A stretch of DNA of 64,000 nt from Kribbella monticola (GTDB taxonomy: Bacteria; Actinomycetota; Actinomycetes; Propionibacteriales; Kribbellaceae), in contig NZ_QFXK01000029.1 in assembly GCF_003261635.1 (NCBI RefSeq), positions 248,001 through 312,000 on the forward strand, given 5' to 3'. Position 1 is the first letter of the stretch. Each line of letters begins with the position of its first letter. The notes beneath the pieces were generated by a model. That model did no database searches. It was given only the letters and a program-made list of their open reading frames with translations, and was not told the DNA's origin. This document shows, one piece after another, positions 3,753-15,438 of this stretch. A program made the translations under genes and the position numbers.

Positions 3753-4697
3753 ATGAGTTTCACGGGGCTTGCCGCCAGGACGTTGAAGACCACGGCCGTC
3801 GTCGCGGGCGTGGGCGCGGCCTGCGTCGCGTACGCCGCCGGCGTCGAGGTCCGCTGGTACACCCTGCGCCGCTTCACGGTTCCCGTCCTGCCACCCGGCG
3901 CAGAGCCGGTGAAGGTGCTGCACCTGTCCGACCTGCACCTGATGCCGAACCAGGAGCGCAAGATCCGCTGGGTCAACGAGCTCGCCAAGCTCGAGCCCGA
4001 CCTGGTCGTCAACACCGGCGACAACATCTCCAGTCCCGACTCGGTGCTGCCGCTGCTCCGCGCACACGGCGCCCTCCTGGACCTGCCCGGCGTGTTCGTC
4101 TTCGGTTCCAACGACTACTGGAAGCCGCACTTCAAGAACCCGGTCAACTACCTGCTCCCCGCCCAGAAGCAACGGCACAAGCCGCACGGGCCGAATCTGC
4201 CCTTCGAGGAGATGCGCAAAGCGTTCACCGACGCCGGCTGGACCGACTTGAACAACGCGAAGGCCACCCTCAAGGTGAACGGCCTACGCGTCGACTTCGC
4301 CGGCACCGACGACCCGCACATCAAGCGAGACCGGTACGCCGAGGTCGCGGGCGAGGTGGATCCCACGGCGGACCTGTCGATCGGGGTCACCCACGCGCCG
4401 TACCAGCGGGTCCTGAACGGTTTCGTCGGCGACGGGTATCCGCTGGTGCTCGCCGGGCACACCCACGGCGGCCAACTCGCAGTACCGATCTACGGCGCTC
4501 TGGTGACGAACTGCGACCTCGACACGTCCCGGGTGAAGGGCCTGACCAGCTGGGGTCACAACGGTCGCCAGGCGGCGTTGCACGTGTCGGCCGGCCTCGG
4601 CACGTCGCCGTACGCGCCGGTCCGGTTCGCCTGCCGGCCCGAGGCGACCCTGCTCACTTTGGTGCCGCGGATTAACCCGATTTCGTCCCAGCGGTAG
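3753..4697 (+). CDS. Membrane-anchored metallophosphoesterase
   Basis: A 314-residue calcineurin-like phosphoesterase, probably held in the membrane by a hydrophobic N-terminus (residues about 8-30). The dinuclear metal ligands appear in order: DLHL (DxH), NTGDN (GDxx), GSNDYW (in place of GNHD), THAP and GHTHGGQ. It resembles the YkuE/YaeI-type lipid or cell-wall phosphoesterases; the substrate is unknown. The ATG at 3753 follows a GGCTGGTG stretch and replaces an earlier in-frame start at 3735. The gene ends 24 bases before tRNA-Pro. It may relate to the nearby PBP, but that rests on proximity only. Confidence 0.9.
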   Translation: MSFTGLAARTLKTTAVVAGVGAACVAYAAGVEVRWYTLRRFTVPVLPPGAEPVKVLHLSDLHLMPNQERKIRWVNELAKLEPDLVVNTGDNISSPDSVLPLLRAHGALLDLPGVFVFGSNDYWKPHFKNPVNYLLPAQKQRHKPHGPNLPFEEMRKAFTDAGWTDLNNAKATLKVNGLRVDFAGTDDPHIKRDRYAEVAGEVDPTADLSIGVTHAPYQRVLNGFVGDGYPLVLAGHTHGGQLAVPIYGALVTNCDLDTSRVKGLTSWGHNGRQAALHVSAGLGTSPYAPVRFACRPEATLLTLVPRINPISSQR

Positions 4698-9474: not shown

Positions 9475-10195
9475 CCGCACAGGTGACGGTGCTCTCCTTG
9501 ATCTGACCGGACCGGTTCCGGCGACACCCACAACCAGTCGCGGAGCCGGCCGGCCGCCGGATAGCCGGCCTCGAGGACCAGCACCGCCGCACTCACCGCA
9601 GCCGCCGTACGACGAAGGCCGCGTCGTGCAGCTGCTCGAGCTCGAGCAGCCGGTTGACGAGCACCTGATCGACATCGACGTCGTGCGGCGGTGAGCGCGA
9701 TCGGCAGCGAGCGCCCGACAGAAGGCACATCGACTGATCCTGGCCCGAGCCCGCGTATCAGCGCAGTCCGGTTGCGGATGCTCGGAGTTGCTCAAAGTCG
9801 GTCCTCCAGCGGTGCTATGACTCGCGCGCACCTCAGCGATCAGCTGAGTACACCCGAACAACCCGCGGCCCCCCACGCAGTTCACAGCCGCGACGGAGGA
9901 GCGGCGACCCGGGGCGGGTGGGTCGAGCCCCGACGTAGGAGGGGCGAAGCGGGTGCACTTCACGCGAGCAGCTGAGTACCCCGAACAACCCGCGGCACCC
10001 CCACGCACCTCACAGCCGCGACGAAGGAGCGGCGACCCGGGGCGGGTGGGTCGAGCCCCGACGCAGGAGGGGCGAAGCGGGTGCAGTTCCGCGTAGTACA
10101 GGAGTTGTGGTTCGGCCCACAGTGGGTGAGTCTCGCCGGATGTGCGGGTGCTGGTTAGAGTCGAGCGGACACCCAATCTGCAATGGAGCAGCCTG
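9475..10195. other. Non-coding region with repeats and possible gene debris
   Basis: About 720 bases lack a convincing gene. Around 9605-9693 an open frame reads DEGRVVQLLELEQPVDEHLI then DIDVVRR and a stop, which looks like the tail of a decayed gene, but nothing upstream continues it. From 9843 to about 10095 the region holds two tandem copies of a 128-bp repeat. The promoter of the CoA-transferase operon must lie at the right end. Confidence 0.5.
9843..10095. repeat. Tandem pair of 128-bp repeats (dispersed family)
   Basis: Copy 1 begins at gctgagta 9843 and copy 2 at gctgagta 9971, a period of 128 bases. They share ccgaacaacccgcgg, cacagccgcgacg, aggagcggcgacccgggg and cgggtgggtcgagcccc with scattered substitutions. 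A shorter relative lies at 3198-3250, and a 17-base core (gacg-N-aggagcggcgac) recurs at about 60050. The family is intergenic each time. Confidence 0.75.
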
Positions 10196-10984
10196 ATGGA
10201 CAAGACGTACGAGTCGCCGCGGGCCGCGGTCGACGACATCGGCGACGGCGCGAGCCTCGCGGTCGGCGGCTTCGGGCTGTGTGGCAATCCGATGGAGCTG
10301 ATCAGCGCTTTGCACGCGAAGGGGGTGAGCGGGCTCAGCGTCGTGTCGAACAACTGCGGCGTGGACGACTGGGGGCTCGGGATCCTGCTCGCGGACCGGC
10401 GGATCGCGAAGATGACGTCGTCGTACGTCGGGGAGAACAAGGAGTTCGCCCGGCAGTTCCTCTCCGGTGAGCTGGAGGTGGAGCTGACCCCGCAGGGCAC
10501 GCTGGCGGAGAAGTTGCGCGCCGGTGGTTGCGGGATCGCCGCGTTCTTCACGCTCGCCGGCGTCGGGACCCAGGTGGCCGAGGGCGGGCTGCCGCAGAAG
10601 TACAACACCGACGGGTCGGTGGCGAAGGCCTCGGAGCCGAAGGAGACCCGCGAGATCAACGGTACGACGTACGTGCTGGAGGAATCCATCACGACCGACT
10701 TCGGCCTGGTGCACGCGCTGAAGGGCGACACGCACGGGAATCTCGTCTTCGACCGCAGCGCGCGCAACTTCAACCCGCTGGCCGCGATGGCCGGCCGGAT
10801 CACGATCGCGCAGGTCGAGGAGCTGGTCCAGCCTGGTGAGCTGGACCCCGACGAGATCCATCTGCCCGGCGTCTTCGTCCAGCGAGTCGTTGCCGTCGGC
10901 AAGGGTATCGAGAAGCGGATCGAGAAGCGCACGGTGCAACCCCGCGAGGCCTACGAGGCGGCCCGCGAGAAGCTGGAGGCCTGA
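10196..10984 (+). CDS. scoA: 3-oxoacid CoA-transferase subunit A
   Basis: The A subunit (262 residues) of a succinyl-CoA:3-oxoacid CoA-transferase, which moves CoA between succinate and acetoacetate in ketone-body and short-chain acid use. Family marks are [19 protein letters not shown] near the N-terminus, the [15 protein letters not shown] stretch, and [15 protein letters not shown]. The C-terminal VQREAYEAA-type tail is usual. ATG 10196 follows a GGAG at 10185-10188. Its stop lies one base before subunit B, so the two form an operon and the heterodimer is made in step. Confidence 0.93.
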
Positions 10985-10985
10985 G

Positions 10986-11615
10986 ATGCCACTCACCCGT
11001 GAGCAGATGGCCGCCCGGGCCGCGTCGGAGCTGGAGGACGGTTCGTACGTCAACCTCGGCATCGGCCTGCCGACGATGGTCCCGAACTACATCCCCGACG
11101 GCGTCACCGTCGTGCTGCAGAGCGAGAACGGCATCCTCGGCGTCGGCCCGTACCCGGTCGAGGGCGACGAGGACCCGGATCTGATCAACGCGGGCAAGGA
11201 GACGGTCACCACCTTGCCGGGCGCGTCGTTCTTCGACTCGTCGCTGTCGTTCGGGATGATCCGCGGCGGCGCGATCGACGCGGCGATCCTCGGCGCGATG
11301 CAGGTGTCGGCCAAGGGCGACCTGTCGAACTGGATGATCCCGGGCAAGATGGTCAAGGGTATGGGTGGCGCGATGGACCTGGTCCACGGCGCGAAGAAGG
11401 TGATCGTGCTGATGGAGCACGTCGCCAAGGACGGCTCGCACAAGATTCTCGAGGAGTGCGATCTGCCCTACACCGGCCGCGGCGTGGTCAACCGGATCAT
11501 CACCGACCTGGCCGTGCTCGACGTGACGGACGACGGTCTCCAGTTGGTCGAACTGGCCGACGGCGTCACCTTCGAGGAGCTCCAGGAGAAGACCGGCGCC
11601 CCGATCAAGCAGTGA
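10986..11615 (+). CDS. scoB: 3-oxoacid CoA-transferase subunit B
   Basis: The B subunit (209 residues). It carries the catalytic glutamate in the [12 protein letters not shown] motif, which forms the glutamyl-CoA thioester in this family. [15 protein letters not shown] and the [20 protein letters not shown] stretch also match. The start ATG 10986 comes one base after the subunit A stop. The operon ends at the strong hairpin just downstream, so no other gene seems to be co-transcribed. Confidence 0.95.
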
Positions 11616-11624
11616 GTCGTACTC

Positions 11625-11659
11625 CGACGGCCGCCCGGTGAGCACCCGGGCGGCCGTCG
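11625..11659 (+). terminator. Terminator after the CoA-transferase operon
   Basis: A perfect 14-bp stem: CGACGGCCGCCCGG (11625-11638) pairs with CCGGGCGGCCGTCG (11646-11659) around a 7-nt loop. It begins nine bases after the scoB stop and has no T-run. Confidence 0.85.
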
Positions 11660-11888
11660 TACGTCCGGACGCCCCGCGACCACCGAGCAGACGTCGAGCG
11701 CGCAGCCGACCCGACGACCGCCGAACAGAGCGTCGTACGCCGGGAAGTCGCCCAACGGTCGGGACGTGGCCGAGAACACGGTCGGCCGGTGCCAACCTCA
11801 GTGCGGGGTCAAGTCGTCCCACGAACATGGGCGCGGTCTTGTGGTGGGCGGTTGACTGTGCGGGAATGAAGCGGGCGAGTGGGGACAG

Positions 11889-12800
11889 GTGGTAGGCGTG
11901 GATGTGTTCGTGATCGGTGGGGTGGGCGTCGACACGATCGTGCGGGTGCCCGAATTGCCGTTGCCGGCCCGGGAGACGATCCCGGTCGCACCGATCGAGT
12001 CGTACGTCGGGCACACGGGGCACGGTGTCGCGCTGGGCTGCCATCGACTCGGGCTGGACGCGGCGATCGCGGACGTGATCGGTGACGACGACGAGGGCGA
12101 CCGGATCCGCTGGACCTACCAGAAACTCGGCATCCCGTTCACGTCGGTCGTCTCGCCCGGCGGTACCCGGCGGGCCGTGAACCTGGTCTCTCCCGACGGG
12201 CGCCGCGTCTCGTTGTACGACGCGCGCCGGCCGCAGTACGACGGATTCAAGGTGCACCCGGATCTGTGGCGGCCGGACCTCAGCCGGACCAGGCACGTGC
12301 ACGTTTCGATCATGGATTTCGCCCGGCAGGCCCTGCCGGATCTCGCGATGGCCGATTGTTCGATGTCCACCGATCTGCACGACTGGGACGGCGTCGACGA
12401 CTACCACCGGGATTTCGCGACGGCCGCCGATGTGGTGTTCGTGTCGGCCGAGGCGCTGCCGGACGACGCGATCAGCTGGATCTTCGCGCACGGCCGGGCC
12501 CAGGCCGTGGTCGCGATGGCCGGTGCCGACGGCAGCTATCTCCACGTCGCGACCGAGAAGCCGGTACACATCCCTCCCGTCGAGATCCCGGAGCGGCCGG
12601 TCGTCGACACCAACGGCGCCGGGGACGCCTATGTCGCCGCCTTCCTGGCGACCTGGCTCGACGGCCGGAGCTGGCGGGAGTCGGCTCAGGCGGGTTCCAT
12701 CGCCGGCGCCTGGGCCTGCGGCTCGCCCGGCACCCACACCGACCTCATCACCGCCGAACAACTGATGACCCTGGTCCTCAAGGAGCTGTCCGCCAACTGA
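11889..12800 (+). CDS. PfkB-family carbohydrate kinase
   Basis: A 303-residue ribokinase-like kinase, which phosphorylates a sugar or nucleoside with ATP. The N-terminal sheet starts DVFVIGGVGVDTIVRVPELP. The C-terminal PfkB signature is VVDTNGAGDAYVAAFLATWL, with the catalytic Asp in GAGD and the oxyanion-forming GAG. VAMAGADGSYL is the usual nucleotide-binding strand. The substrate cannot be read from the sequence. The start is GTG 11889; GTG 11898 is as plausible, since both have purine-rich sequence upstream. It stands alone between two terminators or convergent genes. Confidence 0.88.
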   Translation: MVGVDVFVIGGVGVDTIVRVPELPLPARETIPVAPIESYVGHTGHGVALGCHRLGLDAAIADVIGDDDEGDRIRWTYQKLGIPFTSVVSPGGTRRAVNLVSPDGRRVSLYDARRPQYDGFKVHPDLWRPDLSRTRHVHVSIMDFARQALPDLAMADCSMSTDLHDWDGVDDYHRDFATAADVVFVSAEALPDDAISWIFAHGRAQAVVAMAGADGSYLHVATEKPVHIPPVEIPERPVVDTNGAGDAYVAAFLATWLDGRSWRESAQAGSIAGAWACGSPGTHTDLITAEQLMTLVLKELSAN

Positions 12801-12807
12801 CGGCCGG

Positions 12808-13491
12808 TCACCCGCGCGTGAGCGGTGGGTGGAGGAAAGTAGCCGGGCCGCGCCGGAAGAGTTGCGCGGGTCGGCCTCCGTCGCGGGTGGTGGTCGTGCC
12901 GAGCGGTACGACGAATCCGTCGGTCTTGGTCGCCTTGCGATGGAAGTTGCGCGGGTCGAGCGGCGTACCCCAGACCGCTTCGTAGATCCCGCGCAGTTCC
13001 GAGATGGTGAACTCGTCGGCACAGAACGCGGTCGCCAACGGCGAGTACTCCAGCTTCGCCCGCGCCCGCTCCACCCCGTCGAGGAGGATCCGGTGATGAT
13101 CGAACGCGAGCCGCTCCGGATCAGTCAGTACTTCGTCCGCAGGCACCCAGCTCGCCGAGGCGGCGTCGGTCCCGGCGACCGGCGTCGGCAGATCCGGGAC
13201 CAGCGCCAGGTACGCCACGCTCACCACCCGGCCGCGGGGATCACGGCCGGGTTCGCCATACGTCGCGACTTGCTCGAGGTGGATCCGGTCGGACACCAGC
13301 CCGGTCTCCTCGGCTAGCTCCCGCCGGGCAGCGGCCTCCAGGTCCTCTACCGGCCGGACGAAGCCACCGGGTAGCGCCCAGCGGTCCTTGTGCGGCTCGA
13401 TGCCGCGCCGGATCAGCAGCACCTGCAGGGAGCCGTCGCGAACAGTCAGGATCACCAGGTCGGCGGCGACGCCCATCGGCTCGAAGTCCAT
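12808..13491 (-). CDS. Nudix/winged-helix protein (NrtR-like regulator)
   Basis: A 227-residue fusion of an N-terminal Nudix domain and a C-terminal winged helix, the layout of the NrtR regulators that sense ADP-ribose or related nucleotides. The Nudix box region is GGFVRPVEDLEAAARRELAE followed by ETGL; the RELAEETG core is intact, so hydrolase activity is possible. The C-terminal part (SPLATAFCADEFTISELRGI, GTPLDPRNFHRK) matches the family's DNA-binding half. ATG 13491 was chosen. It faces the SPFH/NAD-kinase-like operon across two palindromes, which I infer are its operators. Confidence 0.85.
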   Translation of the reverse strand: MDFEPMGVAADLVILTVRDGSLQVLLIRRGIEPHKDRWALPGGFVRPVEDLEAAARRELAEETGLVSDRIHLEQVATYGEPGRDPRGRVVSVAYLALVPDLPTPVAGTDAASASWVPADEVLTDPERLAFDHHRILLDGVERARAKLEYSPLATAFCADEFTISELRGIYEAVWGTPLDPRNFHRKATKTDGFVVPLGTTTTRDGGRPAQLFRRGPATFLHPPLTRG

Positions 13492-13505
13492 ACGGCACAC
13501 CTTAA

Positions 13506-13520
13506 TCGTCACCTTGACGA
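13506..13520. promoter_or_regulatory. Palindrome 1 of the Nudix/SPFH intergenic region
   Basis: TCGTCA-CCT-TGACGA is a perfect 15-bp palindrome 15 bases upstream of the Nudix regulator start. An identical half-site pair occurs 34 bases away. This is a likely operator, by position and symmetry. Confidence 0.75.
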
Positions 13521-13539
13521 AAAGCGATTCAGACCCTTA

Positions 13540-13554
13540 TCGTCAGGATGACGA
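13540..13554. promoter_or_regulatory. Palindrome 2 of the Nudix/SPFH intergenic region
   Basis: TCGTCA-GGA-TGACGA has the same arms as palindrome 1 and lies 20 bases before the SPFH start, just ahead of its AGGAG ribosome site. The 34-bp centre-to-centre distance is close to three helical turns, so two dimers could bind on one face. Confidence 0.75.
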
Positions 13555-13573
13555 CAAAAGAGGAGACAGTGAC

Positions 13574-14566
13574 ATGGCGGACATCACCAGGTTCCGGTTC
13601 ATCAGCCACCTACGGGCCAACCCGACCACCCACGTGCGGCACCTGCGCAACGGGAAGCTCGCCCACGACGGGGCCGGCCAGGCCTTCTGGTTCCGGGCCC
13701 TGAACTCGTCCCTGAGCGAGATCCCGATCGACGACCGGGAGCAGCCGCTGCTGTTCCACGGGCGGACCGTCGACTTCCAGGACGTGGTCGTGCAGGCCAC
13801 CGTGACCTACCGGGTGATCGACCCGGCGCTCGCCTCGACCAGGCTGGACTTCGGCATCGACCCCGATACCGGGTTGTGGCGAGCGACGCCCCTGGAACAA
13901 CTCGGCGGCCTGCTGACGGAGCTCGCTCAACAGACCGCGCTGGACCTGCTCGCCCGGATGACGCTGACCCAGGCGCTGTCCGAGGGGATGGCGTCGCTCC
14001 GGCTCGCGGTGAGCACCGGCTTGCGCGAGGACCAGCGGCTGACGGGAATCGGGATCGGCGTCGAGGACGTCCGCGTGGTCGCAGTACGGGCTGAAAGCGA
14101 TGTGGAGCGGGCGCTGCAGACGCCGACGCGCGAGATGGTGCAGCAGGCGGCCGACAAGGCGACGTACGAACGGCGCGCGATGGCCGTCGAGCGGGAGCGG
14201 TCGATCGCCGAGAACGAGCTGCAGAACCAGATCGAACTGGCCCGGCGCGAGGAACAACTCGTCACCCAGAAGGGCCAGAACGAACGCCAACGGGCGACCG
14301 AGGCCGCGGCGGCCGGACGGATCGAGACCGAGGCGTCGGCGTCCCGGCGGCGCCAGTTGGCCGAGGCGGATGCGGACGCGAAGCGGGTCCTCGGTGCGGC
14401 CGAGGCCTCCGCGGAGAAGGCCCTGCTCGAGGCGTACGCCGACCTGAGCCAGGGCACCATCCTCGCGCTCGCGATCAAGCAGGGCGCGCTGCCGGAGATC
14501 GGCACGCTCAACCTGACGCCGGATCTGATCACCCCGCTGCTGGCGAAGCTGGCGAGCCAGGAATGA
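13574..14566 (+). CDS. SPFH (band 7/slipin-like) domain protein
   Basis: A 330-residue SPFH-domain protein. The N-terminal beta-rich part ([20 protein letters not shown], then [20 protein letters not shown]) is the SPFH fold. Residues about 190-290 are a long charged helix ([20 protein letters not shown] and the A/E/R-rich stretch after it) that should form the coiled coil on which such proteins oligomerise. There is no obvious membrane segment, so it may be a soluble scaffold. AGGAG at 13561-13565 sets ATG 13574. The stop overlaps the next gene by ATGA, so translation is coupled to the NAD-kinase-like protein. Confidence 0.88.
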
Positions 14567-15438
14567 GCCTGCCACCCCGGGCCGTGGTGGTGCACCGGGC
14601 GACCGAACTCACCGAACTGGTCGCCCGGCACGGCACCCGCCAGCAGGCCGGCTTCTTCCTGACCAGCCGCGGCCGCGACCTCGCGGAACTGGATGCGCGA
14701 CATCAAGCCCAGCAGCAGGCGCTCGCGACCGTGTCGGCCGCGATTCCACTGGACTGGCGCCGCGCTGTTGCCGAGCGCAACGATCTGGACCGGTTCGTCT
14801 TCGGTCCGGAAGATCTGGTGATCGCGGTCGGCCAGGACGGACTGGTGGCCAACGTGGCGAAGTACCTGGACGGGCAGCCGGTGATCGGAGTCAACCCGGA
14901 GCCGGGCCGCAACCCCGGCGTACTGGTTCCGCATGAGCCTGACGCCGTACTGGAGTTGCTGCGCGGTTTCAATGTCGAGGAGCGGACGATGGTTGCCGCC
15001 AGCACCGATGACGGGCAGAAGTTGCTGGCTTTGAACGAGGTGTACGTGGGGCATCGGACGCATCAGTCGGCGCGGTACCGGCTCGCGTCCCCGGAGGGTC
15101 TGGAGGAGCGGCAGTCCTCATCAGGTATGCTGGTCGGCACCGGCACAGGGTCAACGGGGTGGTGCCGCTCAGCCTGGCAGGAACGCCGCTCGACACTGCC
15201 GCTGCCCGGACCGACAGACGCCTCTCTCTGCTGGTTCGTGCGCGAGGCGTGGCCGTCGCCCGCGACCGGAACCTCCTGCACAGAAGGCCTACTGACGGCT
15301 GCCGACCACTTGACCGTCACCGCCGAGTCCGACCTGGTCGTCTTCGGCGACGGAATCGAATCCGACACCCTGTCGCTCACCTGGGGCCAGCGCGCCGAGA
15401 TCGCGATCGCCGAAACGCGTCTCCGCCTCGCCCGCTGA
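14563..15438 (+). CDS. NAD-kinase-like protein
   Basis: A 291-residue member of the NAD kinase superfamily, which adds a phosphate to NAD to make NADP. The nucleotide motif reads [14 protein letters not shown] (GGDG in classical kinases, GQDG here). It is followed by [22 protein letters not shown] and the GTGTGSTGW loop that holds ribose in true NAD kinases. The C-terminal [10 protein letters not shown] also fits. An extra N-terminal part of about 80 residues with a Q-rich helix is not usual. The substrate could be NAD or another nucleotide. It is coupled to the SPFH gene and faces a Nudix sensor, which supports a nucleotide-related role. Confidence 0.8.

What the first reader, a model, noticed from the sequence alone, without database searches (positions are those of the whole stretch)
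12808..15438. Nudix sensor, SPFH scaffold and NAD-kinase-like protein under twin palindromes
A Nudix/winged-helix protein faces an ATGA-coupled SPFH plus NAD-kinase-like pair. Two perfect TCGTCA-N3-TGACGA palindromes lie 34 bp apart between them. The set looks like a self-controlled unit that senses an NAD-related nucleotide and makes a scaffold-bound kinase. I know no described system with exactly these three parts.
Basis: partly seen in the sequence, partly recalled or inferred. Interest (0 to 1): 0.8.

Follow-up and report, generated by a model that had tools for sequence, protein, structure and literature searches.

The report
Conserved NrtR, SPFH, NAD-kinase-like module
A soil bacterium (Kribbella or a close relative) carries a three-gene unit, also found across actinobacteria and proteobacteria, in which a repressor of the NAD-sensing NrtR type appears to switch on a soluble SPFH scaffold protein together with an enzyme built like the human mitochondrial NAD kinase; the wiring is well supported by genome comparison, but the chemistry is untested.

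Summary
Two perfect TCGTCA-N3-TGACGA palindromes (13506-13520, 13540-13554) lie between an NrtR-family Nudix/winged-helix gene and an ATGA-overlapping SPFH/NAD-kinase-like pair; in 21-bp form they are the only such sites in the 8-Mb genome. The promoter is built into them: the -35 (TTGACG) is the right arm of site 1, the -10 (TATCGT) the left arm of site 2, 17-18 bp apart. Searched blind in 297 genomes of the class, the twin site occurs 27 times, always about 1.1 kb upstream of this kinase gene. Where the Nudix gene has moved, the sites persist; in Streptomycetaceae they also precede the moved regulator gene and pncB, an NAD-salvage gene. In four genomes lacking this NrtR type they are gone. 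The kinase-like protein has the fold and motifs of human NADK2 but escapes Pfam's cut-off; the SPFH protein has no membrane segment. The same triad, with other operators, occurs in alpha-, beta- and gammaproteobacteria. Best reading: an NrtR repressor releases production of a soluble SPFH scaffold and an NADK2-like kinase when an NAD-derived ligand appears. Ligand, kinase substrate and physical association are inferred. No description was found in the held library.

The parts
12808..13491 (-). NrtR-family regulator: N-terminal Nudix domain with intact Nudix box, C-terminal winged helix (motif DPRNFHRK)
   Evidence: Pfam NUDIX 2.6e-24 and NrtR_WHD 3.4e-14; PDB matches 5bs6 (AraR) and 3gz5 (SoNrtR); Nudix box
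13503..13523 (.). Operator site 1, TAATCGTCACCTTGACGAAAA (palindrome core 13506-13520)
13537..13557 (.). Operator site 2, TTATCGTCAGGATGACGACAA (palindrome core 13540-13554)
13514..13519 (+). Inferred -35 box TTGACG, in the right arm of site 1
   Evidence: TTGAC invariant in 77 paired loci, including a T that is free in site 2; inference from conservation and spacing
13538..13543 (+). Inferred -10 box TATCGT, in the left arm of site 2; spacer 18 bp
   Evidence: TTATCGTC nearly invariant in site 2; inference
13560..13565 (+). Shine-Dalgarno-like GAGGAG for the SPFH gene
   Evidence: sequence
13574..14566 (+). Soluble SPFH (Band 7) protein with a long C-terminal helix
   Evidence: Pfam Band_7 7.5e-11; AF2 model pLDDT 84.8; Foldseek HflK, stomatin, erlin, vault; no membrane segment
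14563..15438 (+). NADK2-like kinase-fold protein, translationally coupled to SPFH by ATGA overlap
   Evidence: AF2 model pLDDT 92.8; human NADK2 Z 23.8 over 274 residues; profile 8.3e-16 to NADK2

Best explanation
The unit is an NrtR-type regulon whose output is a soluble SPFH scaffold plus an NADK2-like kinase. NrtR dimers bind the two palindromes, which overlap the -35 and -10 boxes of the SPFH-kinase promoter and lie just upstream of the regulator's own start codon, so transcription in both directions is held down. When an NAD-derived ligand (by family precedent ADP-ribose or a relative) rises, the Nudix domain binds it, the repressor leaves, and SPFH and kinase are made together through the ATGA overlap. 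In actinobacteria the Nudix catalytic motif is intact, so the regulator may also destroy its inducer and reset itself. The SPFH protein probably forms a cytosolic ring or cage that organises the kinase, which phosphorylates NAD or a close derivative. Shown by sequence comparison: operator, promoter overlap, link of the operator to this NrtR type, link to NAD salvage in Streptomycetaceae, coupling, folds. Inferred: repression rather than activation, the ligand, the kinase substrate, SPFH-kinase binding, self-resetting.
For: Triad conserved across actinobacteria and proteobacteria. Twin operator in 77 of 90 loci at 34, 33 or 44 bp spacing, with promoter-like constraint. Blind search: 27 twin sites in 297 genomes, 0 in the reversed control, all 27 about 1.1 kb upstream of the kinase. 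Operators kept where a DPRNFHRK-type NrtR lies elsewhere in the genome (14 genomes), absent in four genomes without one. Moved Streptomycetaceae regulators carry their own site. Same core site before pncB in 10 of 10 Streptomycetaceae genomes and in 0 of 10 others. NrtR relatives release DNA with ADP-ribose (PMC6800001). Kinase: NADK2 fold and motifs. Overlap of -4 in 75 of 90 loci.
Against: No binding or enzyme data. The kinase has GQDGL where NAD kinases have GGDGT, so activity or donor use may differ. The host has two other proteins above the NAD_kinase_C cut-off, so a third NAD kinase is not needed for bulk NADP. In the window genome pncB lacks the site, so the NAD link there rests on the family. 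SPFH-kinase contact was not modelled. Four genomes keep SPFH and kinase without the operator. The genomes behind the operator/regulator correlation are partly related.
Confidence: 0.62

Rival explanations
1. Same NrtR control, but the 'kinase' no longer makes NADP: it phosphorylates another NAD-derived or damaged nucleotide (for example ADP-ribose), or only binds NAD as a sensor, so the operon is a disposal or damage-response unit.
For: GQDGL replaces GGDGT throughout and family-specific motifs such as VREAWPS/VREPFPS are invariant or nearly so; two other NAD_kinase_C proteins exist in the genome; the family is outside Pfam's cut-off.
Against: Catalytic Asp, the NE/ND pair and the SSG...TG.GS.GW region shared with human NADK2 are conserved from actinobacteria to gammaproteobacteria.
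Confidence: 0.28
2. The triad is an anti-phage or conflict system in which the NrtR protein senses NAD loss or ADP-ribosylation during attack.
For: Patchy distribution (51 of 297 genomes), occurrence on plasmids, and paralogous Nudix regulators govern predicted antiviral ADP-ribosylglycohydrolase systems (PMC9503650; paralogues here).
Against: No PADLOC match for SPFH or kinase, only a weak partial Nudix-domain match; no phage or viral homologue; no effector or variable module beside it; syntenic position in Kribbella; operator shared with pncB.
Confidence: 0.07
3. The palindromes belong to another transcription factor and the Nudix gene is only a neighbour.
For: No direct binding data; other regulators recognise similar palindromes.
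Against: Operator and DPRNFHRK-type NrtR are present or absent together also when the regulator gene has moved, and the moved Streptomycetaceae gene carries its own operator copy.
Confidence: 0.03

Closest known systems
[quoted passage not shown] MsNrtR, PMC6800001)
   Same: Nudix plus winged-helix architecture; palindromic operator between the regulator and a divergent NAD-related operon; by family, ADP-ribose response
   Different: Target is SPFH plus an NADK2-like gene instead of NAD synthesis genes; operator TCGTC-N5-GACGA instead of GTTTTCGA-N7-TCGAAAAC; Nudix box intact; it is a paralogue of the NrtR beside nadA/nadB-like genes in the same genome
Human mitochondrial NAD kinase 2 (NADK2; 7r4j, 7n29)
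   Same: Whole-length fold (Z 23.8, 274 residues) and the SSG...TGTGS..W active-site region; best sequence match among solved structures
   Different: 24% identity; GQDGL instead of GGDGT; operon with SPFH and bacterial regulator; activity unknown
SPFH proteins HflK/C, stomatin, vault shoulder domain; soluble subfamilies SPFH8/9 (PMC2636767)
   Same: SPFH domain followed by a long helix
   Different: No membrane segment, no FtsH or NfeD partner; paired with a kinase. Assignment to SPFH8 or SPFH9 not tested
ADP-ribosylglycohydrolase-centred systems with Nudix regulators (PMC9503650)
   Same: Nudix-HTH regulator of an NAD/ADP-ribose-related operon; paralogues found here next to ADP-ribosylglycohydrolase
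   Different: No ADP-ribosylglycohydrolase, phosphatase or chaperone in the present module; different recognition-helix motif

Membership tests
NrtR regulators | Nudix domain plus NrtR-type winged helix | tested here: met
   PF00293 and PF21906 above cut-off; 3gz5 aligned over residues 7-218
NrtR regulators | Palindromic operator at the promoters of target and own gene, co-conserved with the regulator | tested here: met
NrtR regulators | Regulon touches NAD metabolism | tested here: met
   pncB site in 10 of 10 Streptomycetaceae genomes; not seen in the window's own genome
NrtR regulators | ADP-ribose releases the protein from DNA | not testable with these tools
   needs a binding assay
NAD kinase | NAD-kinase fold | tested here: met
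NAD kinase | Pfam NAD_kinase above gathering score | tested here: not met
   18.8 against 25.5 bits; only weak matches, in 13 of 35 members
NAD kinase | GGDG motif with catalytic Asp, NE/ND pair | tested here: inconclusive
   Asp and NE/ND invariant, but GGDGT is GQDGL
NAD kinase | Phosphorylation of NAD | not testable with these tools
   needs an enzyme assay
SPFH superfamily | SPFH/Band 7 domain followed by a coiled-coil-like helix | tested here: met
   Band_7 above cut-off; model and fold match
SPFH superfamily, classical membrane-bound subfamilies | N-terminal membrane segment | tested here: not met
   highest 19-residue hydropathy 1.23 in the window protein, 0.73-1.67 in 90 relatives; model begins with the domain
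SPFH superfamily | Ring or cage oligomer | not testable with these tools
   no multimer prediction available
Anti-phage defence systems | Match of the SPFH or kinase protein to a known defence model | tested here: not met
   PADLOC none for SPFH and kinase; weak partial Nudix match to PDC-S07, 2.6e-05

The most novel reading that the evidence does not exclude
A widespread, undescribed bacterial machine in which a cytosolic SPFH ring or cage carries an NADK2-type kinase, so that NADP (or a phosphorylated NAD derivative) is made inside a scaffold only when an NrtR sensor detects NAD breakdown; a bacterial counterpart of the mitochondrial NADK2 branch, with a repressor that in actinobacteria hydrolyses its own inducer.
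Probability: 0.3. Interest if true: 0.8.

Novelty: new variant of a known kind. Interest (0 to 1): 0.62.

Why it matters
It gives a regulator, an operator and an NAD-linked context to a kinase family that Pfam does not recognise (annotated 'sugar kinase' or 'hypothetical') and to a soluble SPFH protein, over several bacterial classes. SPFH proteins are known mainly as membrane organisers; a soluble one locked to an NAD-kinase-like enzyme would open a new role for the family. The defined operator, the near single-target regulon and the small proteins make the hypothesis directly testable.

Tried and rejected
Chance palindromes: rejected. Other perfect 15-mer copies in the genome as a wider regulon: rejected, none is a pair. 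A fourth conserved gene: none found; the shared clusters were mostly antisense shadow frames or lineage synteny. PfkB, CoA-transferase, TetR and Lnt neighbours as parts: the first two are Kribbella synteny only, the last two were not found in the homologous loci. Phage origin: no match. One operator in all phyla: rejected; gammaproteobacteria show GTGTC-N5-GACAC-like repeats, Rhizobium TCAACTAAGTTAGTTGA, Cupriavidus GTTGTAC-N-GTACAAC. Literature: SPFH with NAD kinase 0 papers; other searches gave nothing on the triad, nor does the survey of prokaryotic SPFH families mention Nudix or kinase (PMC2636767). Rodionov et al. 2008 on NrtR regulons is not held, so prior mention there cannot be excluded.

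Full report
What is there. The window lies in an 8.0-Mb actinobacterial genome; the kinase-like protein is 78-88% identical to its best matches, nearly all from Kribbella. Between a minus-strand Nudix/winged-helix gene (12808-13491) and an SPFH gene (13574-14566) lie two perfect palindromes. The third gene (14563-15438) overlaps SPFH by ATGA. Pfam finds NUDIX and NrtR_WHD, Band_7, and only a sub-threshold NAD_kinase match.

The set is a conserved unit. Among 80 loci from public genomes plus ten from the genome search, SPFH and kinase lie within 60 bp of each other in 88 of 90, with an overlap of -4 in 75, and the Nudix gene is divergent in most. Plasmid and replicon records show the same divergent triad in Rhizobium phaseoli and R. 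etli, Methylomonas, Moraxella, Acinetobacter, Proteus, Providencia and Cupriavidus; Roseomonas has the SPFH-kinase pair without a detected Nudix neighbour. No fourth gene is shared. In the class, 51 of 297 sampled genomes have the kinase.

Operators and promoter. In 77 of 90 loci the two sites are paired at 34 (59 loci), 33 (16) or 44 bp (2). Site 1 always reads TTGAC in its right arm, with the first T invariant, while that base is free in site 2. Site 2 reads TTATCGTC almost without exception. This places TTGACG and TATCGT 18 or 17 bp apart, the spacing of a sigma-70-type promoter for SPFH. My reading is that selection keeps a promoter built from the inner arms of two operators, which fits occlusion of RNA polymerase. 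The twin pattern was then searched blind in 297 genomes: 27 hits, none in the reversed control, and comparison puts all 27 about 1.1 kb upstream of the kinase gene. In the own genome the 21-bp site occurs only here.

Which protein binds. All 71 loci with a divergent Nudix gene, some of them cut by the end of the stretch held, have the operator. In 14 genomes without it nearby (seven of genus g4, four of Kitasatospora, and G300-G302) a close paralogue with the motif DPRNFHRK lies elsewhere, and SPFH keeps its operators, with a degenerate first site in G301 and G302. The relocated regulator genes carry their own copy, except in G300. Four genomes that have SPFH and kinase but no such NrtR (G214, G303-G305) have no operator. 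For 14 against 4 genomes the exact probability is about 3e-4 by my arithmetic, but the four are related to each other, so this is support and not proof.

Link to NAD. With one mismatch allowed, two genomes of genus g4 (taken to be Streptomyces) showed an extra site in front of a gene that Pfam calls nicotinate phosphoribosyltransferase (pncB), followed by an isochorismatase-family gene that is probably the nicotinamidase. Testing 20 genomes, the core palindrome precedes pncB in 10 of 10 Streptomycetaceae, eight perfect in ten core bases and two with one mismatch, and in none of the ten others. One of these, G171, shows no SPFH-kinase pair but keeps regulator, its own site and the pncB site, so the same regulator evidently serves NAD salvage. 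In the own genome a different NrtR paralogue sits beside genes that I read as nadA and nadB from their sequence, so the window's regulator is a second, dedicated one. A third group of paralogues lies near ADP-ribosylglycohydrolase, as described in PMC9503650.

The proteins. The kinase model (pLDDT 92.8) matches human NADK2 best by sequence profile, Foldseek and VIA-align, ahead of bacterial NAD kinases, and shares the SSG...TGTGS..W region. The catalytic Asp is invariant and the NE pair is kept (ND in most proteobacteria), but GGDGT has become GQDGL, so activity must be measured. The SPFH model (pLDDT 84.8) has an SPFH domain and a 115-residue helix and no membrane segment; its best matches are HflK, stomatin and erlin, and the vault protein further down. 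SPFH8 and SPFH9 are the soluble subfamilies in PMC2636767, but I did not assign it. The Nudix box is intact in 64 of 65 cis actinobacterial regulators and degenerate in the proteobacterial ones, so hydrolysis cannot be essential to the whole family.

Conclusion and limits. The wiring rests on comparative evidence that is hard to explain otherwise. Ligand, repression, enzyme activity and assembly are predictions from family knowledge. I score it as a new variant of a known kind: a known regulator family with an undescribed output pair. Absence of prior description was tested only in the open library, and the key NrtR regulon paper is not held.

Noticed in passing
L173, L175, L176, L179, L207: The triad (or its SPFH-kinase part) sits directly beside tet(H) in Moraxella, Acinetobacter and plasmid pHHV216 and beside tet(J) in Proteus, and a small A. 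pleuropneumoniae tet(H) plasmid carries a 3' fragment of the kinase gene next to tetR(H); the mobile tet(H) segment may have come from such a locus.
   Followed up: partly
L227:4572 and L227:11011 (G023:C1:439069 and 445508): Two further perfect TTATCGTC-N5-GACGATAA sites, 6.4 kb apart, precede genes without a confident Pfam family in one Streptomyces-group genome; possible extra regulon members.
   Followed up: partly
L088, L096, L097, L103, L106, L108, L109, L110, L112: All nine Lentzea loci keep only one operator, at the site 2 position, with the Nudix gene still divergent.
   Followed up: no
L120, L121 (G000:C67:8934, C82:345413): The window's genome has two other proteins above the NAD_kinase_C cut-off, so three NAD-kinase-like genes in all.
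   Followed up: partly
L166 (G000:C87:21000-29000): A second NrtR paralogue in the same genome lies divergent to genes that read as nadA and nadB; its Nudix box is degenerate.
   Followed up: partly
L174 about 3895-3940: Cupriavidus carries two near-perfect palindromes GTTGTACAGTACAAC and GTTGTACTGTACAAC upstream of SPFH, a quite different operator at the same place.
   Followed up: no
window 10142-12800: A CoA-transferase-like gene pair and a PfkB-family kinase gene upstream of the module are syntenic across most Kribbella loci and not seen elsewhere.
   Followed up: partly
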